Origin: Methanothermobacter sp. MT-2
Lineage (GTDB): Archaea; Methanobacteriota; Methanobacteria; Methanobacteriales; DSM-23052
NCBI GenBank assembly: GCA_003584625.1
Contig: AP017647.1
Location: forward strand, 435,501-499,500
Direction: 5' to 3'
DNA: 64,000 nucleotides
Part shown: positions 1,293 to 33,699 of the stretch, piece by piece
Position numbering within the stretch: the first letter of the stretch is position 1
Layout: each line of letters begins with the position of its first letter
Translations under genes and position numbers: made by a program
The notes under the pieces: generated by a model
Seen by the model: the letters and a program-made list of their open reading frames with translations, nothing else
Databases searched by the model: none
Told to the model about the DNA's origin: nothing

Positions 1293-2468
1293 ATGAAGAG
1301 GACCTACATCCCCAAACTCGATGATATACTTGGTGGGGGTATAGTCGATAACGCTTCTGTCATGTTTTCTGCTGTCCCTGGTGTGGATTGTGAGGCCTTC
1401 GGTTACCAGATGCTATATGGGCGATTAAAAGAAGGGGACAAAGGTTTCATATTCACGAATGTGGCCGAACCTGAAACTATAACCTATGAATTCAACTCCT
1501 ATGGTTGGGATCTTGAAAAATTTCTTGAAAGTGGGGATGCATTCTTTGTTGATGGAAGTTCACCATTCATGGGATTACCATCAACTGCAAGATATTCCGT
1601 TGATGATTATTCAAAAATAGAAGAGATCGTACTAGAAGCTATAAGTGATGTGCCAGGTGGTATAGGTGTTATAAATAACCTCTCAACCCTAATAGATTAT
1701 CTTGGGGAAGATGAGACCATAAACATTATAAAAAAATGGAACCTATATAGTAGGAGGTATAATACAAACCTTATTTACCTATTCACCAAATGGGATTATA
1801 CTCCTAGCCTAGTGCAAAATCTTAAAAAGATCATGGATTGTGTAGTTGAAATTAGGACAATAGAGGAAAGGGTTATAATAGGCCAGGGTTTCATGGTGGC
1901 TCATTCTTCCTGGTCGAAACCATCAAAGACCATGGTCTTATTCTTTGTAGTGCAACCAGGTGGCGTTAAAGTATACATACCCAAGATATTAGTCACAGGC
2001 CCATATAATGCAGGTAAGTCAACTTTCGTCAAAAAGATATCGAAGAGGGCTGTTTCGGTTGATAGAAAGGCTTTATCAGCTTTCCCCACTACGATAGCCT
2101 TGGATATAGGACACCTCGAATATAAGGGTTTTATAGCGGATGTGTTCGGCACACCCGGCCAGGAGCGATTCGACCTACTATTGGATGTTCTAGGGAGAGA
2201 ATCGGTCGGAGCTTTTATAATTGTTGACTCAACAGCCCCGCAGACATTTGCAAGGGCTAAGGAGATGATAAGGAAGACCAGGGCGGAGGCCATACCGAAG
2301 GTTTTAGTTGCGAATAAACAGGATCTGCCAGGGGCGCTTTCGCCGGAAGAAATACGTGAAAAGATGAAGCTTGGTGAAGAGGTACCTATCATACCAGCCA
2401 TAGTAACTGAGGGGAAAGGGGTTACTGATGCTTTGGATGCTCTTTTAGGATTGCTTTATGGTGATTGA
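1293..2468 (+). CDS. Degenerate RecA/KaiC-like domain fused to small Arf/Ras-like GTPase
   Basis: A 391-residue two-domain protein. Residues 1 to about 220 follow the RAD55/KaiC layout ([11 protein letters not shown] start, then a core) but the expected Walker A is replaced by [11 protein letters not shown], so nucleotide binding there is probably lost. Residues from about 230 form a GTPase: G1 GPYNAGKST (about 236), G3 [11 protein letters not shown] (about 283), G4 NKQD (about 341). The ATG at 1293 has AAGGAG eight bases upstream; a GTG at 1287 overlapping the previous stop is possible. It sits between a Roadblock gene and two RecA-like genes, suggesting one signalling complex. Confidence 0.85.
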
Positions 2469-3167
2469 ATGATTGTAAGGATTTCATCGGGAATTCCTGG
2501 TCTAGATAAACTTATAGGAGGAGGGGGAGGTTCTTTAGCAGAGAATACTGTTACACTCATCTATGGTCCTCCTAAGGTTGGTAAATCTATTTTTTCTTAC
2601 CAATTTGCATATGAGGGTCTTGTTAATGATGAGCCATGCCTTTATGTTAGTACAGATTATGGTTTGAAGGATCTGGAAAGGAATGTGGCCAATTTTGGTT
2701 GGAAGGTTGAGGAATATGTTGGAAGTGAAAATTTTTATCTTATAGATGCGATATCAACAATTTCAGGCGTGGAAGTTAGTAGTACATTAAATTATTTTCC
2801 ATCCTCTGTATATAATCCTACAGATATCATGGTAAAATTGGGTGTGGCTATTCGTCAGATAAAATCAAAGTCGCCCCGTTTCAGATCTGTTCTCGATTCT
2901 TTAACAACACTTATGGCATTTAATGACGAGCTTTTGGTTGTAAGGGTGCTCACAATATATATCATGCGTATAAAAGAGAGTGGAGGGACGGCCATTGTAA
3001 CCTACACGGAAGGATCTGCCGATTCCAAAGTTGAAAACATGTTAAAGGCCATAGTAGATAATATAATTCACCTTGATGGGGAGAACCTCACAGTAGAGGC
3101 TATGGTTGGAAGTGGTAAGCTAAAAGCGCATTATAATATAACTTCCAGTGGCATAGTAGTTGATTGA
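2469..3167 (+). CDS. RAD55/KaiC-like RecA superfamily ATPase
   Basis: 232 residues. It opens with the family signature SGIPGLDKLIGGG, then Walker A GPPKVGKS at residues 33-40 and a Walker B-like hydrophobic strand ending SVLDSLTT near residue 140. Length and order match stand-alone archaeal RAD55/KaiC-domain ATPases, which are used in signalling or DNA-repair accessory roles rather than strand exchange. The ATG follows the upstream stop with no gap. It is a close paralogue of the next gene (shared GPPKVGKS, similar spacing), pointing to a tandem duplication. Confidence 0.85.
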   Translation: MIVRISSGIPGLDKLIGGGGGSLAENTVTLIYGPPKVGKSIFSYQFAYEGLVNDEPCLYVSTDYGLKDLERNVANFGWKVEEYVGSENFYLIDAISTISGVEVSSTLNYFPSSVYNPTDIMVKLGVAIRQIKSKSPRFRSVLDSLTTLMAFNDELLVVRVLTIYIMRIKESGGTAIVTYTEGSADSKVENMLKAIVDNIIHLDGENLTVEAMVGSGKLKAHYNITSSGIVVD

Positions 3168-3181
3168 TCTGTGTGATGTTC

Positions 3182-3865
3182 ATGAAAAATAATTCTGATA
3201 TAACAAATCTTGGGGATCTCCTTGGAGATATAGAACCTGGGAAAATTGTACTACTCTATGGCCCTCCTAAGGTGGGTAAATCCATATTCTGTTACCAGTT
3301 TTTGTATTCTGGTCTTAAGGGTGGAGAACCATGTTTGTATATAGCGGCTGATTATGGTTTAAGGCAACTTGAGCAGAGGATGATGGAGTTTAATTGGTTT
3401 TTGCAACCATATATTCAAAGTGGTGAAGTTTACATAATAGATATTTTAACCCGTTTGGCAGGTGTTAAGATTGGGGATTCAAATGCTGTGAAGTTTTCAT
3501 CAGTTCAAAACCTTGCAGATCTTATGGTTAAGGTGGGTGTGGGGACGCGTTCATTATTCCGGAAATCATCCAAGTTCAGAGCGGTTCTAGATTCACTCAC
3601 AATGATCTTTGCATTTAACCCGCCAAACCTTGTATTGAGGCTGATGAAAGCTTATAAGAATCGTGTAAGTGAAGCAAATGGTATAGGGCTTGTGGTGCAT
3701 ACAACAGGGACTGTTGAACCACAATTTGAAACATCTTTGATGGAATTGGCTGATTTTAAGATATGTTTTGATGGAAAGAGCATCCAAGTAGAATCCTCCG
3801 CAGGTAAAAAATCGGCACAATACACCATAACAGACGAGGGGATCAAGTGTTGGGGAATAGAATGA
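3182..3865 (+). CDS. RAD55/KaiC-like ATPase, second paralogue
   Basis: 227 residues from the ATG at 3182, chosen because GTGAT lies just upstream; an ATG at 3176 or a TTG at 3164 overlapping the previous stop are alternatives. Walker A is again GPPKVGKS (about residues 23-30) and the Walker B-like strand is AVLDSLTM. It lacks the SGIPGLDKLI opening of its neighbour, having a shorter TNLGDLLGDIEPGK start. Probably a subunit of the same signalling complex as the gene before it; function inferred from family and context only. Confidence 0.8.
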   Translation: MKNNSDITNLGDLLGDIEPGKIVLLYGPPKVGKSIFCYQFLYSGLKGGEPCLYIAADYGLRQLEQRMMEFNWFLQPYIQSGEVYIIDILTRLAGVKIGDSNAVKFSSVQNLADLMVKVGVGTRSLFRKSSKFRAVLDSLTMIFAFNPPNLVLRLMKAYKNRVSEANGIGLVVHTTGTVEPQFETSLMELADFKICFDGKSIQVESSAGKKSAQYTITDEGIKCWGIE

Positions 3866-4746: not shown

Positions 4747-5688
4747 TATAAAGGCTAATAGTATCCCAAGGGAACCGAATAGTATTCCTATAAACCATAC
4801 AATGAGTACAACATGTTTTTCTTTCATAGGCCTTCTTAGTATCCATCTTATAAGAGAATTGAAACCTTCTGGGGGAGCTACAAGTTTACCATCCTCTGTC
4901 ACTTTGGTCGGGGCATGCTTATGTCTTTCCATGACACCTGCACTATAAAACTTTAGGAGAGAATCTATTATATTAGGTAATAACACGATGAATGCTATGC
5001 TTTTCACACGGCCTATGAATGCCACGGCTGCTATACATGCACCTATTATAAGCGTCCCAACATCTCCTGGGAATACACGTGAAGGATAACGATTATATAT
5101 TAAGAAGGCTAGTAGTGATCCTAACATTGTCATTGTGATAAGTGAAACATCATATTTTCCCATTATTATACAGGATGCTGTGAGGGAGATCATTGCTATG
5201 GATCCGAGTCCTGATTCGATCCCATTCAAGCCTGCTAGCATGTTGGTAAGGTTTGAGGCGATTGAAACTGCTATTGGCATGCTTATAAGGTAGAGTATCC
5301 CTACGTTGGGTGGTGCCACCCATATAAGTGGGAGTCCTGCTAGGAATAGGAGGAAAAGTTTTTCCTTTGATGATAGTCTTACAAGGTCGTCTATCATACC
5401 TACTACACCTACAAGTAGGATGACTAGTAGGGTTACCATGAGTTCATAGTGGAGTTTTGGGAATGTGCAGATGGCTATGAACATTCCTATTATGAAACCG
5501 AAAAGTATGCCGATTCCACCCATCTCTGCGACTATTGGCTTGGAGAGCTTATGCAAATCTTTTCCAACTAGGTTAGCATTTCTCAGTTTGTTTATTAATC
5601 TTGGCATTACAAGGTAAGTTGATGAAAATGCTATGGTAAAACAGATGATAGAGACTGTTAATATGTTGTTAAATTCGGCTGTTAACAT
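4726..5688 (-). CDS. MraY/WecA-family glycosyl-1-phosphate transferase (GT4)
   Basis: A 320-residue polytopic membrane protein with about ten hydrophobic segments. It has the family's catalytic landmarks: GMIDDL in the first cytoplasmic loop (the DD pair), NLTNMLAGLNGIESG in the middle and FPGDVGTL further on, plus a His-rich loop ERHKHAPT near the C-terminus. Family members move a sugar-1-phosphate from a UDP-sugar to a polyprenyl phosphate. In archaea this is the first step of N-glycan (AglH-type) or wall-precursor assembly. The exact sugar cannot be read from sequence. It follows the HTH gene by 4 bases. Confidence 0.85.
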   Translation of the reverse strand: MLTAEFNNILTVSIICFTIAFSSTYLVMPRLINKLRNANLVGKDLHKLSKPIVAEMGGIGILFGFIIGMFIAICTFPKLHYELMVTLLVILLVGVVGMIDDLVRLSSKEKLFLLFLAGLPLIWVAPPNVGILYLISMPIAVSIASNLTNMLAGLNGIESGLGSIAMISLTASCIIMGKYDVSLITMTMLGSLLAFLIYNRYPSRVFPGDVGTLIIGACIAAVAFIGRVKSIAFIVLLPNIIDSLLKFYSAGVMERHKHAPTKVTEDGKLVAPPEGFNSLIRWILRRPMKEKHVVLIVWFIGILFGSLGILLAFILPLDPI

Positions 5689-5692
5689 TTTA

Positions 5693-6160
5693 TCACCCTT
5701 TTTTGATTATATGATAGACTGTTCTTAGGGGTATATTGAATTTTTCAGCTATTTTTTTGGGTGGCATGCCATTCCTCGCCATCTTCTGCACTTTCATCCT
5801 TGTATTTTTATCATATTTTGGTTTAGGCCCTCTTTTAAGTTTCATATCCCCTTTGAGGTAGTATATGCTTTTGATGGGTATCTTTGTTATGCCTGCTATC
5901 TCTTTCGGGGTTTTACCTTCACTTAGGAGTTTTCTGATCAGTTTCGCGTCCTTTTCTGTGTATTTTCGTGCTCTTCCATGTAAGGGTTCCACTTTTATGT
6001 TTAGTTTTTTGAGGGCTTCAAGGTATTTTGATGGGATTCTCTTATAGATGCTTGGTGGGCATATGATCTTTTCAAGGTCTGGGTTCTTTTCTAGGATTTC
6101 TATTATTTTACGCGAAGTTAAATGTTGTTTTACATGTATTTTTTTCGTCAATATGATCAC
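5693..6160 (-). CDS. DUF1699-like protein with two C-terminal helix-turn-helix repeats
   Basis: 155 residues from a GTG at 6160, which sits one base after the stop of the DUF530 gene. The N-terminal half resembles methanogen DUF1699 proteins (a stretch like EKIICPPSIYKRIPSKYLEA). The C-terminal half contains two similar HTH units of resolvase/Hin type: LLSEGKTPKEIAGITKIP..SIYYL and MARNGMPPKKIAEKFNIP..TVYHI. It is rich in Lys and Arg throughout, consistent with DNA binding. Target unknown. A TTG at 6151 is an alternative start. Confidence 0.7.
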   Translation of the reverse strand: MIILTKKIHVKQHLTSRKIIEILEKNPDLEKIICPPSIYKRIPSKYLEALKKLNIKVEPLHGRARKYTEKDAKLIRKLLSEGKTPKEIAGITKIPIKSIYYLKGDMKLKRGPKPKYDKNTRMKVQKMARNGMPPKKIAEKFNIPLRTVYHIIKKG

Positions 6161-6161
6161 A

Positions 6162-7727
6162 TTATTTGATCATTTCCATGAAGAGCCGGGCCTTTTCAGT
6201 TGTAGGCTTGTCAAGGGTTTTTATATTTTCCTTTTCTCTCTTTAACTGGTCTAGTGTAACAGAGAACACACTAGCACATGTTTCATCACTTATATCGGAT
6301 TCTAGGCTGACTAGAGCTGCTCCGAAGGCCCTTGGATCGATTTTCATGTGCAAGCCTTTCATCCGCTCTTCTATTTCGAATTTTTTCAATAATAATCTTT
6401 GCGGGTTTTTTATATAGAATATTTTCTCACCATATTCTCTGAGGAGTTTGATAGCTTCTTTATCCATTCTATTAAATGTTTCGGTTTGTCTACGGTCTAG
6501 GACTGGTCCCAAGGCAGGGAATGGACCTGCATATTTACTTCTTCTATCATAGGATGTTGTAAGATAATAGCAACTGATATCCCATAATATTAAAGTTATG
6601 GGGATCTTAAAGAAAATATCCTTAATTATAGTATCTCTCAATTCTATATCGGATTTCACTTCAGGTTTTAGGTTTCCATTTTTATCTGCTAGGCCCTCTT
6701 GGATTAAAAGATCTTCTAGTTTTTTTTCGCGGATTTCTTCGAGTTCCCTACTCTCTCTTATAAAAGGTGGTGAGTATCTTCTGGCTTCTTTTAATATTTT
6801 ATCATACTTTCTAACATTCCCGGGGTTTTTTAATCTTTTATTGAAGATGTCATCTTCTATTCTGGCTATGAGATCCTGGGCGAATCCACAGTAGCCTAGT
6901 GCTAATGCCGTTCTGGTGTGCCTATCATTTATTATAGTAGTTTTTTTTCGATGAAACTGGATGAATTCTATCCTTGCATGGGGGCCATATTCTTCTTTCA
7001 CTTTTTTTTCATAGTCGATGTTGTCAATGTTTTCTATGCTCACTCTTTTTCTAATCCACCGCCCAGATTCAAGTATTTTAACTATCATAGTCGCCGAGGT
7101 TATAACACCCCTTCTCTCATTCTTTAGGATTCCTATGATCTCCTTAAAGGATTCCCTGGCCCATGGACTTAATTGGGATATCTTCACCATATAATCTCCT
7201 GAAAGGGGCAAGTATGGGATTATTTCGGGACGTTTAACACTTCCTTTATCAAAGATTAACTTGAGTTCGGAGCCGCATTTACACTTGAACTTTTCTAGTC
7301 TGGGCTCTGATAATTCATTGACCTTGAAGCTTTTACCACATTTTTCACAAATTAAAAGGGAGTATTCCTCTAGGTGGCCTAATGCTATCTTATGTGATGA
7401 TATGGCGGAATTCACCCTGTCTAGTATGTTTTTTCTAATTGAGGCTCTCATTCTAAAGTATTGTGTTTGTCTCCTTATATCATGCAAGTCTTCGACTTTC
7501 ATCTCTTTTAGTGGGGGGCCGTAGACTGCCATTGAACGGTAGGGGGATTTGAAACCTTTTAATTCCATCTTTTCTTTCATCTTTTGTAGCATTCTTAGGT
7601 TAGATCTGAGATAGAGGTATGTTTTCATGAAGTTTTCTGGTTTTATGATGTCATCTATGTTTATCTTTTTGGTTTTTATTGTTTCTAAGAATTTTTCAGA
7701 TTTTGCTATGAGGGCTGGTTCCTCCAT
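6162..7727 (-). CDS. DUF530 family protein with zinc ribbon
   Basis: A 521-residue soluble protein whose sequence and length fit DUF530, a family essentially limited to methanogens and of unknown function. A probable zinc ribbon is formed by CEKCGKSF and CKCGSE about 25 residues apart (around residues 128-155). The rest is basic and helical with no recognisable catalytic motif. It lies between metG and the HTH gene, transcribed with both; the tRNA-synthetase neighbour and the ribbon make an RNA-related role possible but unproved. Confidence 0.8.
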   Translation of the reverse strand: MEEPALIAKSEKFLETIKTKKINIDDIIKPENFMKTYLYLRSNLRMLQKMKEKMELKGFKSPYRSMAVYGPPLKEMKVEDLHDIRRQTQYFRMRASIRKNILDRVNSAISSHKIALGHLEEYSLLICEKCGKSFKVNELSEPRLEKFKCKCGSELKLIFDKGSVKRPEIIPYLPLSGDYMVKISQLSPWARESFKEIIGILKNERRGVITSATMIVKILESGRWIRKRVSIENIDNIDYEKKVKEEYGPHARIEFIQFHRKKTTIINDRHTRTALALGYCGFAQDLIARIEDDIFNKRLKNPGNVRKYDKILKEARRYSPPFIRESRELEEIREKKLEDLLIQEGLADKNGNLKPEVKSDIELRDTIIKDIFFKIPITLILWDISCYYLTTSYDRRSKYAGPFPALGPVLDRRQTETFNRMDKEAIKLLREYGEKIFYIKNPQRLLLKKFEIEERMKGLHMKIDPRAFGAALVSLESDISDETCASVFSVTLDQLKREKENIKTLDKPTTEKARLFMEMIK

Positions 7728-7751: not shown

Positions 7752-9716
7752 TTATTTTATTTTTTCGCCGATTTCTCCATCTTCCACGGTTAATAATCCC
7801 ATTTTTTCTGCTGTTGCAAGTATCATGCCCTCTGATTTTATGCCGAATAACCTGGTGGGTTTTATATTAGCTAATATTATGACTTTTTTTCCTGGTAGTT
7901 CGCTTGCCTGATATTTTGATCCTATGCCAGCCACTACCTGGATGGTTTTATCATTTAGGTCAACTTTTAGTTTTAGTAGTTTATCTGATCCTTTAACCTT
8001 AGAAGCTTCTATTATTTTACCTACTCTCAAATCTAATCTGGCAAAATCGTCTATTGTAACCTCCCTGGTTTTTGTTTTCTGGTGGAGTTTGCGTTTTTCT
8101 TCCTCTATGATCTTATCCTGGATCTTGGCGAATAATGGTTTGGCTTTTCTGATTTTGTGTCCGGCTTCAACTGGCATGGTGGCATCATCCCATGAAGGAT
8201 TCTCTTCTAAGTTGAGGATTTTTAATATTTCATTGGATTTTCTAGGCATATATGGTATTAAGAATACTCCAATGGCCTTAGCTAATTGATTACAAATGAA
8301 TATGCAAGCCGCGGCCCTGTCAGGATCTTCTTTGATGTTTTTCCACGGTTCTTGGTCGTTGAAATATTTATTACCTTTTTTTGCCAAGCCTATTATCTTC
8401 ACAAGACCCTCCCTGAAATTGAATCCTTCAATAGCACCTTCAATATCCTCTTTAACATTCTTCATATCTTCTAGGATTTGCAAATCTTCATCTTTAAGGT
8501 CATCGGCCTCTGGTATTTGGCCATTGAAGAATCTATTGGTAAATGAGAATGTCCGGTGCAGGAAATTACCTAGGATGTCTGCTAATTCATCATTTACTCT
8601 TCTCTGGAAGTCATCCCATGAGAAGTCAGTGTCCCTTGTAAGGGGGGCGTTTATTGTAAGATAATATCTTAGAATGTCGCTTTCAAAACTTTCCAGGAAT
8701 TCTGATGTCCAGACAACCCAATTTTTGCTTGTGGACATCTTTTTACCCTCAAGTGAAAGATATTCTCCTGCTATGATATTATCTGGGAGTTTACAACCAT
8801 ATGCCATGAGCAGAGCTGGCCAGAAAATCGCATGATGATAGATTATATCTTTGCCTATGAAGTGCACTACGGTATCATCCCAGTATTCTTTCCAGTTCTG
8901 GCCCGTTTTTTCGCTCCATTCAACTGCTGATGAAATATAGCCTAGGAATGCTTCACCCCATACATAGATTATTTTTCCCTTGGCTTCCTTAAGGGGGACT
9001 GGTATGCCCCATTCCATGTCCCTTGTAAGTATCCAATCTTTTAGACCTTCCCGCACCCATTGCAGCGCATAATTTTTAACATTCGCAGGCAATTTTTCAT
9101 TGTTTTTTATCCATTCAAGGATTCTATCCTGGAATTTGCTCAGTCTGAAAAAATAGTGTCTAGATTTTTTAACCTTGGGTTCTGAGCCGCAGATCATACA
9201 TTTAGGTTTTATCAATTGTAAAGGTTCAAGGTGTCTGCCGCAAGCCTCGCAATGGTCTCCCCTAGCATCTTCAGCGCCACAGTATGGACATTCGCCTTCA
9301 ACGTACCTGTCTGGGAGGAATCGTTGGCATTCACTACAATAAAATTGTTTTATATCCTTTTCATAGATGAAATCCTTTTCATAGAGTTTTAGGAAAAAGT
9401 TTTGGGCTATCCTATGATGTAATGGGTTGCTTGTGCGTGAAAAATTGTCGAATGATATGTCACATGCTTCAAGATCGCGACGGATCATCTTGTAATAATA
9501 TGTTGCCACCTCAATGGGTTCTTTTGATTCCTTCTCGGCCTTGACGGCTATGGGGGTTCCATGTTCATCTGTTGCACATACAAATAAAACATCTCTGTTT
9601 TTCATCCTATTGTAGCGAGCATATATATCCGCGGGTATATACGTTGATCTTAAATGTCCAAGATGCGTTGGACCATTTGCATATGGAAGTGCGCAGGTGA
9701 TAAATATTTTGTTCAT
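7752..9716 (-). CDS. metG: Methionyl-tRNA synthetase
   Basis: Attaches methionine to tRNA-Met. 654 residues. Class I features: [15 protein letters not shown] (HIGH-type) at residues 7-21, KKMSTSK (KMSKS) in the second half, and a zinc domain with four CxxC knuckles (CSEC, CPYC, CEAC, CMIC), as in double-knuckle archaeal enzymes. A C-terminal tRNA-binding EMAPII/Trbp111-like domain follows (about 110 residues, starting [13 protein letters not shown]). The start is the ATG at 9716, preceded by GGGAGG; the frame runs further upstream to 9773 but that part is not conserved-looking. Confidence 0.97.
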
Positions 9717-9801
9717 TGTCTCATTCCTCCCATCTGTGAAAATAAAGTTTAATAATAAAGTTTCATCTGTCAAGGATTATAACCCTTAATTTTGTAATTT
9801 A

Positions 9802-9813
9802 ACTATATATATT
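9802..9813 (-). promoter_or_regulatory. TATA-box promoter of metG
   Basis: Read on the minus strand, AATATATATAG lies about 90 bases before the metG ATG, giving a predicted transcript start near 9780. The roughly 250-base gap from here to the plus-strand gene at 10060 shows no other feature beyond AT-rich sequence. Confidence 0.5.
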
Positions 9814-10059
9814 CTCTTCTTTGCAAATATATTTTAGAGAGTTCCCTTTCAAAATTTGGAGATCATTTTAGTCTTAAGATTTGGGAATGGAATCCTTTTT
9901 TTCTCCACACCTCCTTGACTAATACTTTGAATCGTCTTTGCAAGATGTCTGCGCCCTATGTAAGTGTGTTGAAATCCACTATTAATATAATTTAAAGAAT
10001 GCTCTCTTTTATCCCCCTAATTTCTGTTGGAAGAAAATCGGGTGCACATTTTATATACA

Positions 10060-10410
10060 ATGGAGGATATAATAACAGTACAGAAGGGATTTTTTTTGAC
10101 AAAAATAGGTAAAATTTTATATAACACATTTGTGAAGCATCCAGAGATGAAAGAAAGATTAGAAAAGTTAGTTGATAAAGGATTAACAGTCAAGGAATTA
10201 CAGGAACATGTGGACGTGGAAGTGCCATGCTATTTATTGTTCCCGGATCCTGCGAGGTTCGGATGTGAAGGATGCGACCTAAAATGCGCTAAAGCGTCTA
10301 TGGCATCCCAAAAATTAAAAAAACATCCACTTAAAGAAGTAATTGATAAAACACACCTATATAAACATTTAGAAGTGTTTCTTCGCCCAAGGCTAGTCAT
10401 CCAAGTTTAA
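10060..10410 (+). CDS. Small cysteine-motif protein of unknown function
   Basis: 116 residues from the ATG at 10060. The centre holds four cysteines in the order C..(14)..CEGCDLKC, a likely zinc or iron-sulfur site; the rest is basic and helical. No family recognised. The start is uncertain: a TATA-like TTTTATATA (10049-10057) would initiate near 10078, past the ATG, and a TTG at 10096 has AAGGGA six bases before it, giving a 104-residue product that keeps all four cysteines. The 3' end overlaps the convergent Mur ligase gene by 14 bases. Confidence 0.65.
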   Translation: MEDIITVQKGFFLTKIGKILYNTFVKHPEMKERLEKLVDKGLTVKELQEHVDVEVPCYLLFPDPARFGCEGCDLKCAKASMASQKLKKHPLKEVIDKTHLYKHLEVFLRPRLVIQV

Positions 10411-14763: not shown

Positions 14764-14849
14764 CTTTTTCAATATGTGTTTAAAATATTGGGGGGTTTAT
14801 TATTTTTTTAAACTCCTTGGGTAAAAAGCGATTTGTGAGGTGTGAAATA

Positions 14850-17426
14850 TTGTTAAATATGCGCAAATTTGCTTTCTTCCTTGCAGCTTTTGCACTGCTA
14901 CTAGTTCTATCTAATGGAGCAGAGGCAGCGGTCTACAACAACAACACAGGCCAAAGCTACTCAACAATCCAAGAAGCCATAAACAATGCAAGTGAAGGAC
15001 ACACACTAATAGCAGATCCAGGCGTGTATCAAGAGAACATTATCATAGACAAGAACAATATCACGCTAATCAAAAACCAGACCACCAATAACACAGCCAT
15101 AATAAACGCCACCAACACCAATCAACCTGTAATCAACATAACCAAAAACAATGTGCAAATAATAGGATTCACAATAAAAAACGGCTACTATGGAATCTAC
15201 CTCTATGGTTCAGATAATACGATCTACAACAACACTATAACCAACAACAGCTGGGATGGAATCTTCCTCGACCATTCTTCAAATAATACAATCTACAACA
15301 ACACTATAACCAACAACAGCGATGGAATCTTCCTCTACTATTCTTCAAATAATACGATCTACAACAACACTATAACCAACAACAGCGAGTATGGAATCTA
15401 CCTCTATGGTTCCAGTAGTAGTGTGTTGCGTGGTAATGTTGTTGAGGATTGTGGGCGTGGTTTTTCTGTTGAAGGCAGTGGCGTTGAATATTTTATCCAG
15501 GATGTTGACACTTCAAATACCATAGATGGTAAGCCGATCTACTATCTTGTTGGATACACCAACATGGTGTATGATGGAGTGGCTATGGGCTACCTTGCAC
15601 TGGTAAATTGTGAAAACATTACAGTAATGAATGTGGAACTTTCAGGAAACGGCCAAGGAATACTAATAGTAAACACTACAAACTCCAAAATCCAAAACTC
15701 CAACATAACCAACAACGACCATGGAATCTACCTCCAATATTCAGAATATAATACGATCTACAACAACACCATAACCAACAACAGCTGGCATGGAATCTAC
15801 CTCTATTCAGGCTCAAGTAATACGATCTACAACAACACCATAACCAACAACAGCGGGCATGGAATCTACCTCTCAGACTCAAATAATACAATTTCCAACA
15901 ACACCATAACAAACAACGGAGATGGAATCTGGCTCTATGGTTCCGGTAGTAACATGATTTCGGGGAATTATTTCATTGAGAATAGGCAGCAGATAGGAGG
16001 GGATCCGAGCGGTAATTATTGGAACACGACAGAAGGTGGTAATTACTGGTCAGATTACACAGGAGACGATCTTAACGGGGATGGTATAGGTGACATACCA
16101 TACCGACAAGATCAGAAACCATTAATTGTTGACCTAATGATAGAAAACCTCACGGTAACGAGTAGTACAATACAGGTAAACGTTAGGAATAATGGGAAGG
16201 CAGATATAACAAAGATAGATCCAAACGCAAAATTCCCAGTCAAAATAACCTATGACAGCACCGAATACCTACAATATCTAAATTCCCTAACACCCGGCGG
16301 AGAACAAACAATCACACAAAACATCACAGCCAGCCCAGGCACCCACAACATCACAGCAAACATACTCTACAACGAAACAACACACTACCTCCAAAATACC
16401 ACCATAAGAGACGCCAACACCGCAAACAACATCAAAAACACAACCAAAGAATTCAAAACAAACATAACAGCCAACAACCTTAACGTGACGCCAACTTCTG
16501 GCGTTGCACCATTAAACGTGACAGTATCCTGCAAGCTAACAAACACTGGTGAAGTTGCAGGAGATTACACAGCAGAACTCAAAATAAACAGCGCGGTTGT
16601 TGACAGTCAGACAGTCACGGTAGGTGCTGGAGAAACCAAGACAGTAACATTCACGAGGACACTAGAAGCCGGAACATACAACATAACAATAGACGACCTG
16701 GCGCCAACAGCAGTGACGGTGTTAAGACCAGCTAATATAACAGCCAGCAACCTTACTGTGACGCCAACTTCTGGCGTGGCACCATTAAACGTGACAGCTT
16801 CTTGCACACTAACAAACACTGGTGATGTTGCAGGAGATTACACAGCAGAACTCATGATAAACGGTATAGTTGTGGCGAATCAGACAGTCACGGTAGGTGC
16901 TGGAGAAACCAAGACAGTGACATTCAATAGGACATTAGGAGCTGGAACATACAATGTGACAATAGATGGGCTGGCGCCAATAGCGGTGAGTGTGACTCCG
17001 GCTGGTGTTAGTTTAGGTGATCTTGTTTCGGCTGCGAATATGGTTAAGGCATATCATGAGCGTTATGGTAGGCTTCCAAGTCGGGTGGTGATCGTTGGCC
17101 AGAATTATACAATGTCTCAACTGTTATACTTGCTTACAAAGGCTACAGTTAATATAAATGTGGGTAATTTGAGTCCGATTGCTCCGAGGGCTGTTGGAGC
17201 TCCAACTGCACCTGGTGGAAGTTACAGGTCTGGCAGACTTTACAAGTCGGCTTATGTGCAGGTTGCAGCGAACATTCTATCATTCATTGACAGTTATGGC
17301 AGAGCACCCAATTATGCTAGCACAAGCCTTGGCAGAATACCATTCCAACGCTTAGTCTACATGTACACTAAGATCATAGCATTCTATGGAACATACCACA
17401 GACTGCCAAATTATGTCACAATCTAA
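14850..17426 (+). CDS. Secreted beta-helix / CARDB / pseudomurein-binding surface protein
   Basis: About 858 residues. A signal peptide (MRKFAFFLAAFALLLVLS, cleavage near AEA-A) leads into a parallel beta-helix (NosD/PbH1 type, about residues 25-410) of repeated NTIYNNTITNNS units. Next come a CARDB-like domain (ENLTVTSSTIQVNVRNNGK) and two near-identical CARDB domains, each starting NVTPTSGVAPLNVT or close. The C-terminus has two pseudomurein-binding repeats (YHERYGRLPSRVVI and FYGTYHRLPNYVTI types), which anchor proteins to pseudomurein. GAGGTG at 14837-14842 fits the TTG at 14850; the ATG at 14859 is an alternative. Likely an adhesin or carbohydrate-binding wall protein. Confidence 0.9.
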   Translation: MLNMRKFAFFLAAFALLLVLSNGAEAAVYNNNTGQSYSTIQEAINNASEGHTLIADPGVYQENIIIDKNNITLIKNQTTNNTAIINATNTNQPVINITKNNVQIIGFTIKNGYYGIYLYGSDNTIYNNTITNNSWDGIFLDHSSNNTIYNNTITNNSDGIFLYYSSNNTIYNNTITNNSEYGIYLYGSSSSVLRGNVVEDCGRGFSVEGSGVEYFIQDVDTSNTIDGKPIYYLVGYTNMVYDGVAMGYLALVNCENITVMNVELSGNGQGILIVNTTNSKIQNSNITNNDHGIYLQYSEYNTIYNNTITNNSWHGIYLYSGSSNTIYNNTITNNSGHGIYLSDSNNTISNNTITNNGDGIWLYGSGSNMISGNYFIENRQQIGGDPSGNYWNTTEGGNYWSDYTGDDLNGDGIGDIPYRQDQKPLIVDLMIENLTVTSSTIQVNVRNNGKADITKIDPNAKFPVKITYDSTEYLQYLNSLTPGGEQTITQNITASPGTHNITANILYNETTHYLQNTTIRDANTANNIKNTTKEFKTNITANNLNVTPTSGVAPLNVTVSCKLTNTGEVAGDYTAELKINSAVVDSQTVTVGAGETKTVTFTRTLEAGTYNITIDDLAPTAVTVLRPANITASNLTVTPTSGVAPLNVTASCTLTNTGDVAGDYTAELMINGIVVANQTVTVGAGETKTVTFNRTLGAGTYNVTIDGLAPIAVSVTPAGVSLGDLVSAANMVKAYHERYGRLPSRVVIVGQNYTMSQLLYLLTKATVNINVGNLSPIAPRAVGAPTAPGGSYRSGRLYKSAYVQVAANILSFIDSYGRAPNYASTSLGRIPFQRLVYMYTKIIAFYGTYHRLPNYVTI
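15222..15912 (+). repeat. Tandem coding repeats of the beta-helix
   Basis: Repeated near-identical DNA of the form ATCTACAACAACACTATAAC, spaced about 66-75 bases apart, encodes successive beta-helix rungs (NTIYNNTITNNS). Three copies lie in 15222-15400 and three more in 15755-15912, separated by a non-repeated stretch. Third-base variation is low, implying recent unequal crossing-over or gene conversion. Confidence 0.75.
16470..17000 (+). repeat. Tandem duplication of a CARDB domain inside the surface gene
   Basis: Two copies of about 260 bases (roughly 16470-16730 and 16735-17000) encode matching domains; both include CCAACTTCTGGCGT and GTAGGTGCTGGAGAAACCAA. Differences are few and scattered, so the duplication is recent. 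Confidence 0.75.
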
Positions 17427-29542: not shown

Positions 29543-29827
29543 TCAAATATATGGCATAGAAATGAGAAGTACACCTATTAGGGACATTATAACAAAAAGT
29601 GTTTCGAGCACACCTTTTTCATCGCCTCTAAACACATTCTTCGACAGAAAATAGATTAGCAAAAACATATTTCCCAGTAAAAGACACGTTAACAATATAA
29701 TAGGTAGTTTAGGCCCAGTAGACAGTAAAGCCAACTTACTACCCGTACAGTAAAACCAACAAAATTGTAAAACACGATAACGACGCCAAAAACTGAAAAA
29801 GCTTAGATGTATACTGCATCCTCCCAC
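29543..29827 (-). CDS. Cassette A small membrane protein (possibly frameshifted)
   Basis: The frame encodes up to 94 residues; the plausible part ends LTCLLLGNMFLLIYFLSK...FVIMSLIGVLLISMPYI, two membrane helices. NMFLLIY is shared with the small membrane protein at 30346, showing homology. The upstream half reads better in another frame (FSVFGVVIVFYNFVGFTVRV), so a frameshift is likely. An internal TTG at 29734 could start a shorter product. It lies directly downstream of cassette gene A, overlapping its last codons. Confidence 0.45.
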   Translation of the reverse strand: MGGCSIHLSFFSFWRRYRVLQFCWFYCTGSKLALLSTGPKLPIILLTCLLLGNMFLLIYFLSKNVFRGDEKGVLETLFVIMSLIGVLLISMPYI

Positions 29828-30213
29828 CTCAAACTACCATCAGGATTCTTCGGTATTTCAATATAGTGTATACAATGATCCTCACCAACATAACTTCTCA
29901 ACTCATAACCATAAATCCAGGTACGATGAATCGAAATATACTTCCAATATTCTTGGGGAAGATAATGATCTCTAAATGTAAGTATGCCATCACCTATCCG
30001 CATACACCATCCAATTGGTTGAAATATTTCACCACCACACTCTACTAACACATATGCCAAAACCTGGATCAAACAGTGAGCAGTATCTTCTGAAATGTAT
30101 GTTTGGTGTTCTATGATGAATTTTTTGATATCGTCTGTGATGTTTAGGAGGCTTGTGTAGGCTATTGTTGCCACGTATCCTGCCATGTTGAGTCCTATAA
30201 GTCCCTGGCCCAC
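29803..30213 (-). CDS. Cassette gene A (conserved ends, variable middle), 5'-truncated
   Basis: Up to 136 residues. The N-terminal GQGLIGLNMAGYVATIAY through KKFIIEHQTYI is near identical to cassettes B and C at DNA level. The middle (about residues 45-75) is unique. The last 60 residues (YLPQEYWKY, GYELRSYVGEDHCIHY, IPKNPDGSLRW) are shared. The only start is an internal GTG with no ribosome site, and upstream homology stops at DILNYG, so this looks like a truncated orphan module. Family not recognised. Confidence 0.55.
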   Translation of the reverse strand: MGQGLIGLNMAGYVATIAYTSLLNITDDIKKFIIEHQTYISEDTAHCLIQVLAYVLVECGGEIFQPIGWCMRIGDGILTFRDHYLPQEYWKYISIHRTWIYGYELRSYVGEDHCIHYIEIPKNPDGSLRWEDAVYI

Positions 30214-30234
30214 AAGACCATAATTGAGGATATC
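30094..30234 (-). repeat. Cassette repeat R1, copy A
   Basis: 141 bases matching copy B (30908-31048) with no difference found by eye; encodes DILNYGLVGQGLIGLN to HQTYI. Copy C (33031-33079) keeps only the first 49 bases as written on the plus strand. Confidence 0.9.
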
Positions 30235-30269
30235 CTGGAATGTAAATCCACATAGACTTCAACATTATC

Positions 30270-30337
30270 ATGAGTTGTGATATTTTTTATAGGTTTTTTT
30301 TCTAAGATTTTCCAGTTTTTTTGGGCGTGGGGGGCTG
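30270..30337 (-). repeat. Cassette repeat R3, copy A
   Basis: 68 bases containing ATGAGTTGTGATATTTTTT and CCAGTTTTTTTGGGCGTGG, matched by 33077-33152 with small indels. On the minus strand it encodes SSPPRPKKLENL, the tail of the membrane-protein partner, here lying in frame just after that gene's stop. Confidence 0.8.
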
Positions 30338-30345
30338 CTTTTCTT

Positions 30346-30588
30346 TTATGCAAGGCCAAAGAAGCCTATAATTACAAGCAAGCCTCCAAGTGCTCTGACA
30401 GTTTCATTTTCAGTTTTTCCCAACTCATCCTTGCCTAATAGGTAAATTAAGAGAAACATGTTCACTATGTAAATGGAATAGACAATTAATTTGCTGATAA
30501 TATAGGGGAAACGGAGACTAACCACAACCAATGCAGCAGTAAAATAAGAAAGGAAATAACTAAAATAAAAAATGTACTTTACCATCAT
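30346..30588 (-). CDS. Cassette B small membrane protein
   Basis: 80 residues with about three membrane helices (IFYFSYFLSYFTAALVVVS, IYIVNMFLLIYLLG, ALGGLLVIIGFFGLA). ATG at 30588 with GGAGGA a few bases upstream. It follows cassette gene B by 13 bases on the minus strand, like a toxin/immunity or effector/partner pair. The TAA stop is followed in frame by KKSSPPRPKKLENL, the tail still present in the 33095 paralogue, so the stop may be a recent shortening. Confidence 0.6.
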   Translation of the reverse strand: MMVKYIFYFSYFLSYFTAALVVVSLRFPYIISKLIVYSIYIVNMFLLIYLLGKDELGKTENETVRALGGLLVIIGFFGLA

Positions 30589-30601
30589 ATCATCCTCCTA
30601 A

Positions 30602-31084
30602 TCAGATATACACTGCTTCATCCCACCTTAAAGTACCATCTGGGTTCTTTGGGATTTCAATGTAGTGTATGCAATGGTCTTCGCCAACATAACTTTTAAG
30701 TTCATAACCATGCCGCCAAGTTCTATGGTAAGAAACATATTTCCAATATTCAGTTGGAAGATAATTCGTTCTTGCCTTCACAATTAAATCACCTTCTGCT
30801 AATAGTAGAGAAGCAATCGAAAAAATACCACTTGCCAAGGTGACACCTTCACTACTAAGCTCTTTTAAACTCCATATAAAAAGAATCCCATCTATAATGT
30901 CCTCTTCAATGTATGTTTGGTGTTCTATGATGAATTTTTTGATATCGTCTGTGATGTTTAGGAGGCTTGTGTAGGCTATTGTTGCCACGTATCCTGCCAT
31001 GTTGAGTCCTATAAGTCCCTGGCCCACAAGACCATAATTGAGGATATCAACAAAAGCCATTGGACCTTCCAAGGCAATGTACAT
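30602..31084 (-). CDS. Cassette gene B, longest array copy
   Basis: 160 residues from the ATG at 31084. Order: MYIALEGPMAFVDILNYG, then the shared R1-encoded block, a unique middle (DGILFIWSLKELSSEGVTLASG..LLLAEGD, about residues 62-105), and the conserved C-terminal 60 residues ending LRWDEAVYI. The frame stays open upstream to 31210 with protein-like sequence (RLVLFLDGNSTVNLEGLDD), but with no start codon or ribosome site, so this also seems to be the tail of a once longer protein. Some hydrophobic segments could insert in membranes. Family not recognised. Confidence 0.6.
   Translation of the reverse strand: MYIALEGPMAFVDILNYGLVGQGLIGLNMAGYVATIAYTSLLNITDDIKKFIIEHQTYIEEDIIDGILFIWSLKELSSEGVTLASGIFSIASLLLAEGDLIVKARTNYLPTEYWKYVSYHRTWRHGYELKSYVGEDHCIHYIEIPKNPDGTLRWDEAVYI
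30908..31048 (-). repeat. Cassette repeat R1, copy B
   Basis: The 141-base equivalent of 30094-30234. The identity over synonymous positions implies very recent duplication or gene conversion, in contrast to the unrelated middle part of the genes. Confidence 0.9.
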
Positions 31085-31229
31085 GGAGACTACAAGGCCA
31101 ATATAGGCCTTCTTGATACTATCATCTAAACCTTCAAGGTTTACCGTGCTGTTGCCATCCAGGAAAAGGACGAGCCTAGTAGAAAGGTTATGATCATTAA
31201 CCGTCGTATTTCATCCTTCCTTTCCTTCA

Positions 31230-31430
31230 ATTTGAATTGGAGCCAGAATAGAAGAGAAAAAATGAACAGAGGTTTAAAAGGTCTGCTATTGGAATCAAAT
31301 CATTAAAATGTTTAATTCCAATGGGAAATAAAATAATATCGAGACAAATAAGGGAATAAAGTATATTGAGCAAAGATTCATAATCCAAGAAAAGACACCT
31401 CCTATATCATCCACTTAGACTACCCCATTG
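31230..31430 (-). pseudogene. Decayed remnant of another cassette unit
   Basis: 31320-31420 matches the start region of the membrane gene at 32640-32735: both have ATATCGAGACAAATA or a near form, a run of AATAAG/AATAAA, and CCTCC..CCACTTAGA at the junction to the cassette gene. No open frame survives. This indicates a lost fourth unit between cassette B and the TPR gene. Confidence 0.4.
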
Positions 31431-31530
31431 GGGTTCGTTTGAGAATTTTAGCTCCACACACAATATAGTTGCCGCGGATTGTATATAGTCTTTGTTTTTC
31501 TGGGGGGGTCTAGTGGGGTTTCTATTAGAT

Positions 31531-32211
31531 TTATTTTTTGTCTGTCTCTAATCTTTTTATGGCTTTTTTGGCTTCTTCATGATCTGGTTTTGCCTTTAAT
31601 GCTCTCTTATATGATTCTTCCGCCTCTTCGCGTCTTCCTAGTTTTTCCAGGGTTTGGCCTCGCTTATACCATGCTTCTATGTCTTCTGGGTCTAATTGGG
31701 TGACTTTTTCGTAGCATTTTAGTGCTTCTTTGTATTTGCCGAGCTTTTGTAGTGCTGCTCCTTTGTTGTACCATGCTTTGTCATCTTCTGGGTTTATCTG
31801 TAATGCTTTTTCATAGCATTCCACTGCTTCATCATACCTCCCAAGCTTGGCTAAAGTAACTCCCTTGCCGCGCCATGCTTCTACAAATTTTGGGTTTATT
31901 TTTAGGGCTTTATCATAGCATTTGATGGATTTTTCAAGTTTTTCGAGTTTCTCTAAGGTGCAGCCTTTCCAGAACCATGCTATTTCTGAATTAGGATTTA
32001 ATTGTAGAGCTTTATTAATGTGTTTGAGTGCTTTTTTATATTTTCCAAGTTTGTTTAATAGTATGCCTTTGGAAAATGGTGCTGTGTAGTCATTAGGGTC
32101 TATTTCTGAAACTTTGTTAAAACAATTTGATGCTTTCTTTTCCATTCTTATATTTGCAAGGGTAGCGCCTTTATAAAGCAATGCTTCTTTTAAAGTGGGG
32201 TCTAACTCCAA
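31531..32211 (-). CDS. TPR-repeat protein with lost or shifted start
   Basis: At least six TPR units of the GxAxxKLGxYxEAxxCYEKAL type (for example GAALQKLGKYKEALKCYEKV), a protein-interaction solenoid common in Methanobacteriales. The TTG at 32211 is the first start in frame, yet two more good TPR units lie upstream in the same frame (LLNQKKYEESIKYFDKAL and GIALRDLERDEEALECFNKS) without any start codon. An ATG at 32414 in another frame (MLFRGSREDHY) suggests the gene originally began there and suffered a frameshift. It interrupts the cassette array. Confidence 0.7.
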   Translation of the reverse strand: MELDPTLKEALLYKGATLANIRMEKKASNCFNKVSEIDPNDYTAPFSKGILLNKLGKYKKALKHINKALQLNPNSEIAWFWKGCTLEKLEKLEKSIKCYDKALKINPKFVEAWRGKGVTLAKLGRYDEAVECYEKALQINPEDDKAWYNKGAALQKLGKYKEALKCYEKVTQLDPEDIEAWYKRGQTLEKLGRREEAEESYKRALKAKPDHEEAKKAIKRLETDKK

Positions 32212-32476
32212 GCTTTTATTGAAACATTCTAACGCCTCTTCATCTCTTTCAAGGTCTCTGAGCGCAATACCCTTATTGCACCATGCTAGTGCGTATTCTG
32301 GGTCTATCTCTAATGCTTTGTCAAAGTATTTTATGCTTTCTTCGTATTTCTTCTGATTTAAAAGATCAACGCCTTTATTCAGTAGTGATCTTCTCTTGAA
32401 CCTCTAAATAACATGTAGAGGCACCTTCTATCCTTTGTTTGTGGTTGTATTATTATCCTTGAGATAAATAGCCCTG

Positions 32477-32716
32477 CTACATCCCTAGAGATCCAAATAT
32501 AATCAGTACAAGGGTTATGGCTTCCATCCATTTTATTTCATCCTTTATTTCCTTCACATCATCCTTGTAGTCGTAGCATAACTCTAAAGACAAAAGAATA
32601 AAGATGGCTAAAAAGCATGCTATTGGTACCAAAACACGAAATATCTCAAAGCCAACAAAATATAAAGAAATATCAAGACAAATAAGAAAATAAAACTTAT
32701 CGAGTCCATACTTCAA
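32477..32716 (-). CDS. Cassette C small membrane protein
   Basis: 79 residues: two or three hydrophobic helices (FLICLDISLYFVGFEIF, VLVPIACFLAIFILLSLEL), a charged loop (YDYKDDVKEIKDEIKW), then ITLVLIIFGSLGM. It sits 14 bases after cassette gene C. Its sequence differs from the partners in units A and B, so partner and middle region vary together. Upstream GGAGGG gives a ribosome site. Confidence 0.55.
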   Translation of the reverse strand: MKYGLDKFYFLICLDISLYFVGFEIFRVLVPIACFLAIFILLSLELCYDYKDDVKEIKDEIKWMEAITLVLIIFGSLGM

Positions 32717-32730
32717 TAAACTCCCTCCAC

Positions 32731-33082
32731 TTAGATATATACTGCCTCATCCCATCTTAAAGTACCATCAGGGTTCTTTGGTATTTCAATATAGTGTATA
32801 CAATGATCCTCGCCAACATAACTTCTCAACTCATAACCATCGAACCATGAATGATGATACGCTATATACTTCCAGTACTCTTTTGGAAGATAATGATCTC
32901 TAAATCTCAATATGTTCTCACCTATCATTATACAATATCCAATTGGCTCAAGTATTACACGGCCACTCCCTGATAACACGCGTCCCAAAACAATAAGTAA
33001 AGGACCATGTAAAAAACCAATGTCCTCTGGAATGTATGTTTGGTGTTCTATGATGAATTTTTTGATATCGTCTGTGATGAGT
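32731..33082 (-). pseudogene. Cassette gene C, 5'-truncated
   Basis: The C-terminal block (YLPKEYWKYI, GYELRSYVGEDHCIHY, LRWDEAVYI) is intact and the middle is again unique (GFLHGPLLIVLGRVLSGSG). The N-terminal block is cut at TDDIKKF: upstream the sequence switches to repeat R3 of the neighbouring membrane gene. No start codon precedes the R1 remnant; a TTG at 32988 would give an 85-residue product. Either a silent module or a recent deletion product. Confidence 0.55.
33031..33079 (-). repeat. Cassette repeat R1, copy C (truncated)
   Basis: 49 bases identical to the ends of copies A and B (AATGTATGTTTGGTG to CGTCTGTGATG). It stops at a GATG shared with repeat R3, marking a recombination junction. 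Confidence 0.85.
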
Positions 33083-33152
33083 TGTGATATTTTTTTATAG
33101 GTTTAATATTTTTTCTTTAAGATTTTCCAGTTTTTTTGGGCGTGGGGGGCTG
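33077..33152 (-). repeat. Cassette repeat R3, copy C
   Basis: Counterpart of 30270-30337; encodes the SSPPRPKKLENLKEKILNL tail of the membrane gene at 33095. It overlaps copy C of R1 by three or four bases. Confidence 0.8.
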
Positions 33153-33460
33153 GAGATTCTTTTATTCCCGTATATTAAGGTTACTATGAGTGTTAATGCT
33201 GCTAGTATCTTGAAGGGTTCTGACATATAATAAATAAGGATGACGCATGAAATTAAAGTTAGTATGTATATAATGGCTTCTAATCTTTTCTTTTTATCAG
33301 GGTATTTTCCAGCCGCCTCACAACCTAAATAATCAGCCACCCCTACCAATATTAGCCATGGAAACGCCAGATTAAAACCTAAAACAATATAACAAGCAAT
33401 GAAAAGGGAACATAAAATTCCTTCGATGATAAATAACGACCATTTCATATCTTCACTCAT
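33095..33460 (-). CDS. Cassette-array membrane protein with conserved tail
   Basis: 121 residues with four membrane helices (FIIEGILCSLFIACYIVLG, LAFPWLILVGVADYLG, IIYILTLISCVILIYYM, ILAALTLIVTLIYG), then a basic tail SSPPRPKKLENLKEKIL. The ATG at 33460 overlaps the stop of the gene before it (ATGA), so the two are coupled. Possibly the membrane partner of a further unit, E. Confidence 0.6.
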   Translation of the reverse strand: MSEDMKWSLFIIEGILCSLFIACYIVLGFNLAFPWLILVGVADYLGCEAAGKYPDKKKRLEAIIYILTLISCVILIYYMSEPFKILAALTLIVTLIYGNKRISSPPRPKKLENLKEKILNL

Positions 33461-33699
33461 GCTTTCAGCCTCAAGACATCATCATATTTATAGCCTTCAC
33501 TCTTGTACCATTGCTCATATTCTCTCAGTCCATTAACCAATAAATCCAAACCACCACCAAAAAATAGTAATACATTATAGTATAAAAAGATTACTATCTT
33601 CTTTGGAGGCGAAAAAAGTATATGCAGGGGGACTAGGGTTCCAGTTAACACATAGGAAAACAAAAAAGGGGGAGAGAATTTCCAAGACAAGCATGCCAA
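33457..33699 (-). CDS. Small protein coupled to the array membrane gene
   Basis: 80 residues from a TTG at 33699; membrane-like first half and a soluble end REYEQWYKSEGYKYDDVLRL. The TGA overlaps the next ATG. It occupies the position of a cassette gene in unit E but lacks the conserved DEAVYI end. Probably a fragment or divergent unit. Confidence 0.4.
   Translation of the reverse strand: MACLSWKFSPPFLFSYVLTGTLVPLHILFSPPKKIVIFLYYNVLLFFGGGLDLLVNGLREYEQWYKSEGYKYDDVLRLKA

What the first reader, a model, noticed from the sequence alone, without database searches (positions are those of the whole stretch)
29543..33699. Array of orphan-like gene cassettes with conserved ends, variable middles and small membrane partners
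Three genes (29803, 30602, 32731, minus strand) share an N-terminal block, near identical in DNA between two copies, and a C-terminal 60-residue block, but differ in the middle. Each is followed by a different small membrane-protein gene. None has a proper start: all look 5'-truncated. This is the layout of orphan C-terminal modules of polymorphic toxin or surface-protein loci, where silent cassettes recombine into an expressed gene and carry their own partner (for example an immunity protein). No such system is known to me in Methanobacteriales; function is inference.
Basis: partly seen in the sequence, partly recalled or inferred. Interest (0 to 1): 0.8.

Follow-up and report, generated by a model that had tools for sequence, protein, structure and literature searches.

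The report
Swappable toxin-like tails in methanogens
A methane-making archaeon carries a row of silent spare tail pieces, each beside its own small membrane-protein gene, for a protein that sits in the cell wall; related strains wear different tails on the same protein and have swapped them, which looks like a new wall-anchored version of the toxin-and-immunity systems microbes use against close relatives.

Summary
On the minus strand the window holds three 5'-truncated cassettes that share an N-block and a C-block and differ in the middle, plus remnants of a fourth cassette, a TPR-protein gene and a partner gene that has lost its cassette. Full-length parents (842-868 aa) exist in this genome and its relatives: signal peptide, three pseudomurein-binding repeats, PKD, a conserved domain absent from Pfam and NCBIfam that ends in GAYCYxxQQTE, then the variable tail. 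Bodies 97% identical carry tails 26% identical, and bodies 74% identical carry identical tails. One window cassette is a DNA mosaic with both breakpoints in the shared blocks. Cassette DNA is mostly 97-100% identical to that of a different family whose DUF763 protein is only 59-61% identical, so transfer was recent. The conserved domain occurs in 93 of 152 genomes searched. 42 of 53 tail genes, against 13 of 88 controls, are followed by a multi-TM or TPR gene. The window-type tail also occurs fused to a secreted C39 peptidase. Best reading: a polymorphic, probably membrane-directed toxin-immunity system anchored in pseudomurein. Toxicity and immunity are inferred; the mBio 2019 archaeal survey could not be read.

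The parts
33457..33699 (-). 3' remnant of a fourth (type IV) module cassette, ending GLDLLVNGLREYEQWYKSEGYKYDDVLRLKA
   Evidence: 92-100% DNA identity from 33566 down to the matching cassette at L007:12309-12857 in the same genome
33095..33460 (-). Intact partner of the type IV module: 121-aa membrane protein; its ATGA start overlaps the module stop
   Evidence: ORF; GAGG upstream of ATG; about 100% DNA identity to the L007 copy; the L007 copy scores 2 TM segments
32731..33099 (-). Cassette A3: orphan type I module with only the last part of the N-block, its own middle and the C-block; no start codon with RBS
   Evidence: the middle differs from the L007 cassette at the same junction
32477..32716 (-). 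Partner of A3: 79-aa membrane protein, TTG start after GGAGG
31531..32403 (-). 5'-truncated TPR gene, the partner class of the T-type tails
   Evidence: open frame without start; same TPR family follows T-type tails elsewhere
31227..31388 (-). Degraded partner gene (LDYESLL family) that has lost its cassette; intact after the TAHC cassette in G016, G018 and G010
   Evidence: GGAGGTG upstream
30602..31207 (-). Cassette A1: orphan type I module (middle IIDGILF); frame opens at 31207, first ATG at 31084 has no RBS
   Evidence: middle 99% identical in DNA to the G016 cassette
30346..30588 (-). Partner of A1: 80-aa membrane protein, ATG after GGAGG; DNA 100% identical in G016
29803..30255 (-). Cassette A2: orphan type I module; mosaic in which the TAHC middle replaces the VFHG middle found at this site in relatives
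   Evidence: breakpoint map, identity dip
29543..29819 (-). Partner gene after A2 (MQYTSKL family), frameshifted by a 2-nt deletion; belongs to the replaced VFHG middle
30086..30234 (-). N-block copy in A2, 98% identical to 30900-31048 in A1; the last part recurs at 33019-33079 in A3
29802..30063 (-). C-block repeat (with part of the middle) in A2; other copies at 30601-30862 and 32730-32991

Best explanation
The locus is a store of silent, exchangeable effector tails of a polymorphic toxin-immunity-like system of Methanobacteriota. A long secreted protein is exported by its signal peptide and held in the pseudomurein wall by three PMBR repeats. After a PKD domain and a conserved domain ending in GAYCYxxQQTE it carries a variable, glycine-rich hydrophobic tail of about 200 residues. 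The tail most likely inserts into and permeabilises the membrane of neighbouring or sibling methanogens. A partner gene directly downstream, either a small multi-TM protein or a TPR protein according to tail family, most likely protects the owner. Cassettes made of a tail plus its partner lie as 5'-truncated orphans and are moved into the full gene, or between cassettes, by homologous recombination in the shared blocks. They also spread between distant genera. Shown here: architecture, tail polymorphism, orphan arrays, a mosaic with breakpoints in the shared blocks, co-variation of tail and partner, and horizontal transfer. Inferred: toxicity, membrane as target, immunity function, silence of the cassettes, and who is attacked.
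For: Full-length parents with PMBR x3 and PKD; three PMBRs suffice for wall binding (PMC2989375). Body 97% with tail 26% identical, and body 74% with tail 100% identical. The A2 mosaic and a second different-middle-same-junction case inside this genome. Cassette DNA mostly 97-100% identical across families whose DUF763 protein is 59-61% identical. Middle and partner co-vary within the array. Order-wide 42/53 tail genes against 13/88 controls have a TPR or at-least-2-TM gene within 120 nt (Fisher p 1.6e-14). Partner class follows tail family: type I 16/16 small TM; type II 9/10 TM5-6, the tenth cut at a contig end; two T-type families 7/7 and 5/6 TPR, the sixth a fragment without a detected partner. 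Partners have ribosome-binding sites, orphan modules do not. Orphans with other tails in other genera. The type I module fused to a secreted C39 peptidase next to double-glycine-like leader peptides and TM genes.
Against: No tail matches any known toxin or fold in Pfam, NCBIfam, PADLOC or PDB. The AlphaFold models are not confident in the tails. The A2 cassette sits beside a non-matching, frameshifted partner, so pairing is not strict in silent arrays. About 980-aa single-copy versions with a conserved type I tail are widespread in one genus, which could mean a housekeeping or adhesive role. TPR partners are unusual as sole immunity proteins.
Confidence: 0.72

Rival explanations
1. Surface-antigen or adhesin variation: the tails are exchangeable surface or membrane-anchoring segments that change adhesion, cell-cell recognition or virus attachment, and the partners help fold, anchor or display them.
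For: The N-terminal parts are typical methanogen adhesin-like architectures (Big, Fn3-like, beta-helix, PMBR, PKD). Methanobrevibacter adhesin-like proteins are discussed only as adhesins in PMC11532034. The ~980-aa version is near-universal in one genus. VARTIG authors keep the same alternative open (PMC8416519).
Against: Partner class switches with tail family between unrelated protein types, TM and TPR; orphan partners keep ribosome-binding sites while their modules cannot be exported; the same module is fused to a C39 bacteriocin-type peptidase with its own signal peptide.
Confidence: 0.17
2. Degenerate duplicates: the window array is leftover of tandem duplication and decay with no function.
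For: Two of five partner genes in the window are broken and modules lack starts; no parent gene lies in the window.
Against: The array is nearly identical in DNA to that of another family, three partner frames are intact, the same modules are intact tails of full genes elsewhere, and the layout recurs in other genera. It may hold for this particular array without holding for the system.
Confidence: 0.07
3. Archaeocin store: the type I modules are bacteriocin-like peptides whose active form is the short hydrophobic segment plus C-block released by a protease, and the PMBR protein is only one of several carriers.
For: C39 peptidase-module fusions with leader LSTEEMQxIxGK and neighbouring small peptides with the same leader beside the polymorphic locus.
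Against: No such leader in the window cassettes or PMBR parents (the pattern was found only in the loci listed); no C39-module gene found in the window's own genome. It is a special case of the main explanation rather than a contradiction of it.
Confidence: 0.12

Closest known systems
Bacterial polymorphic toxin systems (CDI, Rhs, WapA and others; Zhang et al. 2012, PMC3482391)
   Same: Long exported protein with variable C-terminal tail after a constant body, orphan tail cassettes, partner gene next to each tail, exchange by recombination, horizontal spread
   Different: Pseudomurein-binding anchor; undescribed pre-tail domain; no known toxin or processing domain; hydrophobic tails; two partner classes (multi-TM and TPR). 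The 2012 survey calls such systems generally absent in archaea except some methanoarchaea and haloarchaea; its held text does not mention Methanobacteriales genera
VARTIG modules of Thermococcales (Makarova et al. 2021, PMC8416519)
   Same: Archaeal, hypervariable C-terminus of a large surface protein, membrane-protein genes that follow particular variants, recombination between species
   Different: VARTIG variability lies in an Ig domain; here it lies in hydrophobic tails after a non-Ig domain. That survey's searches found no closely resembling module in other archaea
Class II bacteriocins with C39 leader peptidases
   Same: A related module is fused to a C39 peptidase (PF03412, E 5e-33) beside peptides with LSxEEMQxIxGK leaders and TM genes; an archaeal C39 island with double-glycine leaders was pictured in PMC6393860
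   Different: The window cassettes have neither the leader nor the C39 domain and belong to long wall-bound proteins
Pore-forming toxins with membrane immunity proteins (colicins, Rhs toxin Tse5; PMC10684867)
   Same: C-terminal membrane-directed fragment delivered by a large carrier, paired with a cognate immunity gene
   Different: No sequence or fold match found; activity untested
Methanogen adhesin-like proteins (PMC11532034, PMC2812497)
   Same: Same kinds of N-terminal surface domains and wall anchors
   Different: Those papers as searched describe adhesion only, with no polymorphic tails or partner genes

Membership tests
Polymorphic toxin system | Exported long protein with N-terminal trafficking or anchoring region | tested here: met
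   Hydrophobic N-terminal signal region, three PMBR, PKD in 842-868 aa parents
Polymorphic toxin system | Constant body, sharply bounded variable C-terminal tail | tested here: met
   Bodies 97% with tails 26% identical; bodies 74% with tails 100% identical; boundary at GAYCYxxQQTE
Polymorphic toxin system | Orphan tail cassettes near the full gene | tested here: met
   Own second locus L007 and G016, G018, G010; also two Methanobacteriaceae loci of other genera
Polymorphic toxin system | Cognate partner gene adjacent to and co-varying with the tail | tested here: met
   one exception, cassette A2
Polymorphic toxin system | Recombination of tails | tested here: met
   Mosaic A2, tail swaps, second case
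Polymorphic toxin system | Recognisable toxin domain in the tail | tested here: not met
   No Pfam, NCBIfam, PADLOC or PDB match
Polymorphic toxin system | Tail toxic, partner protective | not testable with these tools
   Needs expression and competition assays
Polymorphic toxin system | Known processing or delivery hallmark (HINT, RHS, PVC metallopeptidase, CDI motif) | tested here: not met
   None in Pfam or NCBIfam scans of parents
VARTIG | Variable C-terminal Ig domain | tested here: not met
   The variable tails have no Ig match; Ig-like PKD or Big domains lie in the constant body
VARTIG | Confined to Thermococcales | tested here: not met
   Present across Methanobacteriota, 93 of 152 genomes
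Class II bacteriocin | Double-glycine leader and C39 processing | tested here: not met
   Absent from window cassettes; present in related C39-module genes
Pore-forming toxin | Membrane insertion and channel formation | not testable with these tools
   Only hydropathy: 0-3 TM-like segments per tail

The most novel reading that the evidence does not exclude
A native, order-wide archaeal warfare system: wall-anchored proteins of pseudomurein methanogens fire exchangeable membrane-active tails at kin, with two unrelated classes of immunity partner (multi-TM and TPR), a new pre-tail domain and new tail families, evolutionarily continuous with C39-processed archaeocins and diversified by gene conversion from silent cassettes that also move between genera.
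Probability: 0.5. Interest if true: 0.88.

Novelty: new variant of a known kind. Interest (0 to 1): 0.75.

Why it matters
Experimental evidence for archaea fighting close relatives is scarce, and the 2012 comparative survey called polymorphic toxin systems generally absent from most archaea. If right, most Methanobacteriales, including gut and rumen Methanobrevibacter, carry a strain-specific weapon-and-immunity locus hidden among 'adhesin-like proteins'. It would offer a first look at how pseudomurein-walled cells attack and recognise each other, candidate antimicrobials specific for methanogens, a marker for strain compatibility in biogas and gut communities, and a naturally recombining cassette array in Methanothermobacter.

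Tried and rejected
No relative of the modules in plasmids, of the parent in viral contigs, and in phages only a PMBR match to Methanobacterium virus Drs3, so a viral or plasmid origin is not supported. AlphaFold models from 15-19 sequences gave a confident conserved domain (pLDDT mostly 75-94) but unreliable tails, and Foldseek gave nothing with E below 0.001; the weak LolA-like hits (probability about 0.2) were discarded. Profile and sequence searches of PDB were empty or insignificant. Weak Pfam hits of partners (EI24, DUF3021, DUF1516) are below cut-off and were ignored. Six literature searches aimed at this system or its parts found no description; the key paper mBio 2019 e00715-19 is not held, so part of this system may already be catalogued there. 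I considered calling the C-block merely a recombination anchor and rejected that, because it is the best conserved part of the stand-alone C39-fused module.
Full report
WHAT IS THERE. The window is G000:C1:435501-499500 of a 1.52-Mb Methanobacteriales genome. The region 29543-33699, minus strand, holds three 5'-truncated genes, A3 (32731-33099), A1 (30602-31207) and A2 (29803-30255), with a shared N-block (98% over 149 nt between A1 and A2; only the last 61 nt in A3) and a shared C-block. Between cassette types the N-blocks are 82-100%, the C-blocks 78-97% and the middles 37-69% identical by protein. No candidate start codon of the modules has a ribosome-binding site, whereas every partner gene has GGAGG or GAGG. 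The array is larger than described. It also holds the 3' end of a fourth cassette with an intact 121-aa membrane partner (33457-33699 and 33095-33460), a truncated TPR gene (31531-32403) and a degraded partner whose cassette is gone (31227-31388).

THE FULL-LENGTH GENE EXISTS. Six-frame search of the order found the same C-terminal block at the end of 842-868 aa open frames in relatives. The window's own genome has a parent of 856 aa at C1:731,435-734,002 (L007), carrying another tail. Parents begin with a hydrophobic signal region, then three pseudomurein-binding repeats (PF09373, E down to 1e-28) and a PKD domain. Deletion work on protein MTH719 showed that binding to pseudomurein needs a minimum of three such repeats (PMC2989375). 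Then comes a conserved domain with no Pfam or NCBIfam match, ending in GAYCYxxQQT(E/D)WA, and after it the variable tail.

TAILS ARE EXCHANGED. G000 and G016 parents are 97% identical over 606 residues of body and 26% in the tail, while one G016 and one G018 parent are 74% identical in the body and 100% in the tail. The stretch from A1 to the A2 partner is mostly 97-100% identical in DNA to G016, although the DUF763 protein (chosen as the vertical yardstick) is only 59-61% identical between these genomes. Within that stretch identity drops to 52-72% at the middle of A2. A three-way map shows A2 as a mosaic: upstream flank like the G016 cassette at that site (VFHG), middle like another G016 cassette (TAHC), partner again VFHG-like, with both breakpoints inside the shared blocks. 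In G000 the TAHC partner is left behind without its cassette, and the A2 partner has a 2-nt deletion. A second case lies within this genome: A3 and an L007 cassette share nearly identical DNA up to the N-block and differ in middle and partner. N-blocks are more alike within a genome (98-100% DNA between A1 and A2 and between two G016 cassettes) than between orthologous cassettes of two genomes (92%), while middles and partners of orthologous cassettes are 98.5-100% identical. This is what recombination in the shared blocks predicts.

PARTNERS FOLLOW TAILS. Within the array, similarity of middle and partner correlates (Mantel r 0.60, p 0.012), the clear outlier being the freshly swapped A2. Across the order, 42 of 53 tail genes but 13 of 88 other large soluble ORFs in the same loci are followed within 120 nt by a TPR or at-least-two-TM ORF (Fisher p 1.6e-14). 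Tail families keep to one partner class: window-type tails always a 65-140 aa TM protein (16/16); a second family a 210-292 aa protein with 5-6 TM segments (9 of 10, the tenth cut at a contig end); two further families TPR proteins (7/7 and 5/6, the sixth being a fragment with no detected partner). One small mixed cluster (4 tails: 2 TPR, 1 TM, 1 none detected) and a few small clusters and singletons remain. TM counts are a plain hydropathy threshold, not a trained predictor, and families were made by single linkage.

DISTRIBUTION. The conserved domain is found in 93 of 152 genomes of the phylum-level set searched. In the GTDB-wide pattern scan the organisms were Methanobacteriaceae plus two bacterial MAG contigs that look mis-binned; that scan reaches close relatives only. 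Orphan copies with different tails also occur in two other loci (G149, G047). A roughly 980-aa version, single-copy in many genomes of one genus, carries a conserved window-type tail and usually a TM partner. No plasmid, viral or phage carrier was found beyond a PMBR match.

LINK TO ARCHAEOCINS. In G010, G006 and G002 the window-type module ends a 294-302 aa protein that has its own signal peptide and a C39 peptidase domain (PF03412, E about 1e-32), followed by a four-TM gene. The module follows LSTEEMQ(N/K/R)I(R/K)G(K/R), a double-glycine-like leader. In G010 neighbouring peptides of 92 and 82 aa carry LSTEEMQKIIGK or LSREEMQKIIGK, and each is followed by a TM gene, directly upstream of the parent gene. 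C39 peptidases process bacteriocin leaders (established knowledge), and an archaeal island of that kind was pictured in PMC6393860. This is the best independent sign that the module is an antimicrobial effector.

MECHANISM. Shown: architecture, polymorphism, cassettes, recombination, partner association, transfer. Inferred: the hydrophobic glycine-rich tail acts on the membrane of neighbours after delivery from the wall-bound carrier; the partner protects the owner; orphan partners widen the owner's immunity or serve as spare parts. I put about 0.72 on toxin-immunity and about 0.5 on membrane permeabilisation specifically. Structure prediction gave no usable tail model and no fold relative.

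COMPARISON AND NOVELTY. It works like a polymorphic toxin system. It meets the layout, exchange and partner criteria, has no recognised toxin or processing domain, and its toxicity was not testable, so I do not file it as a proven member. VARTIG is the nearest archaeal parallel but varies in an Ig domain. Surveys I could read either call such systems generally absent from most archaea (PMC3482391) or found no closely resembling module outside Thermococcales (PMC8416519). The main archaeal toxin survey (mBio 2019) could not be read. I therefore rate it a new variant of a known kind.

CAVEATS. The DUF763 comparison uses one gene. The window array itself may be a decaying remnant even if the system is active.

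Noticed in passing
L039 (G010) reverse strand 66-1463; L047 (G006) rc 5010-6361; L049 (G002) rc 8736-10133: Secreted C39 peptidase fused to a window-type module, followed by a four-TM gene: an archaeocin-like gene pair.
   Followed up: partly
L039 rc 1521-3387; L036 rc 72-694; L018 rc 2227-2790: Small peptides with an LSxEEMQxIxGK double-glycine-like leader (two of them seen followed by TM genes); probable archaeocin precursors, no Pfam or NCBIfam match for the one tested.
   Followed up: partly
L123 (JAAYUT010000508.1) and L131 (JARKQC010000271.1): Contigs filed as Atribacteria and Bacteroidota MAGs carry Methanobacteriales-type tail genes; probably mis-binned.
   Followed up: no
L101-L105, L108-L110 and many further genomes: A ~980-aa protein with the conserved domain and a conserved window-type tail, single-copy in many genomes of one genus, usually with a TM partner; why it is so conserved is unexplained.
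   Followed up: partly
window 14817-17426 (+): Another PMBR-anchored surface protein with beta-helix-like repeats, not related to the conserved domain.
   Followed up: no
G000:C1 (52 PMBR hits): Many other PMBR surface proteins in this small genome, e.g. a 2226-aa frame at C1:353592-354239.
   Followed up: no
G016:C1:386344-387422: DUF763 gene is split into two frames in this genome although intact in the other six genomes searched.
   Followed up: no
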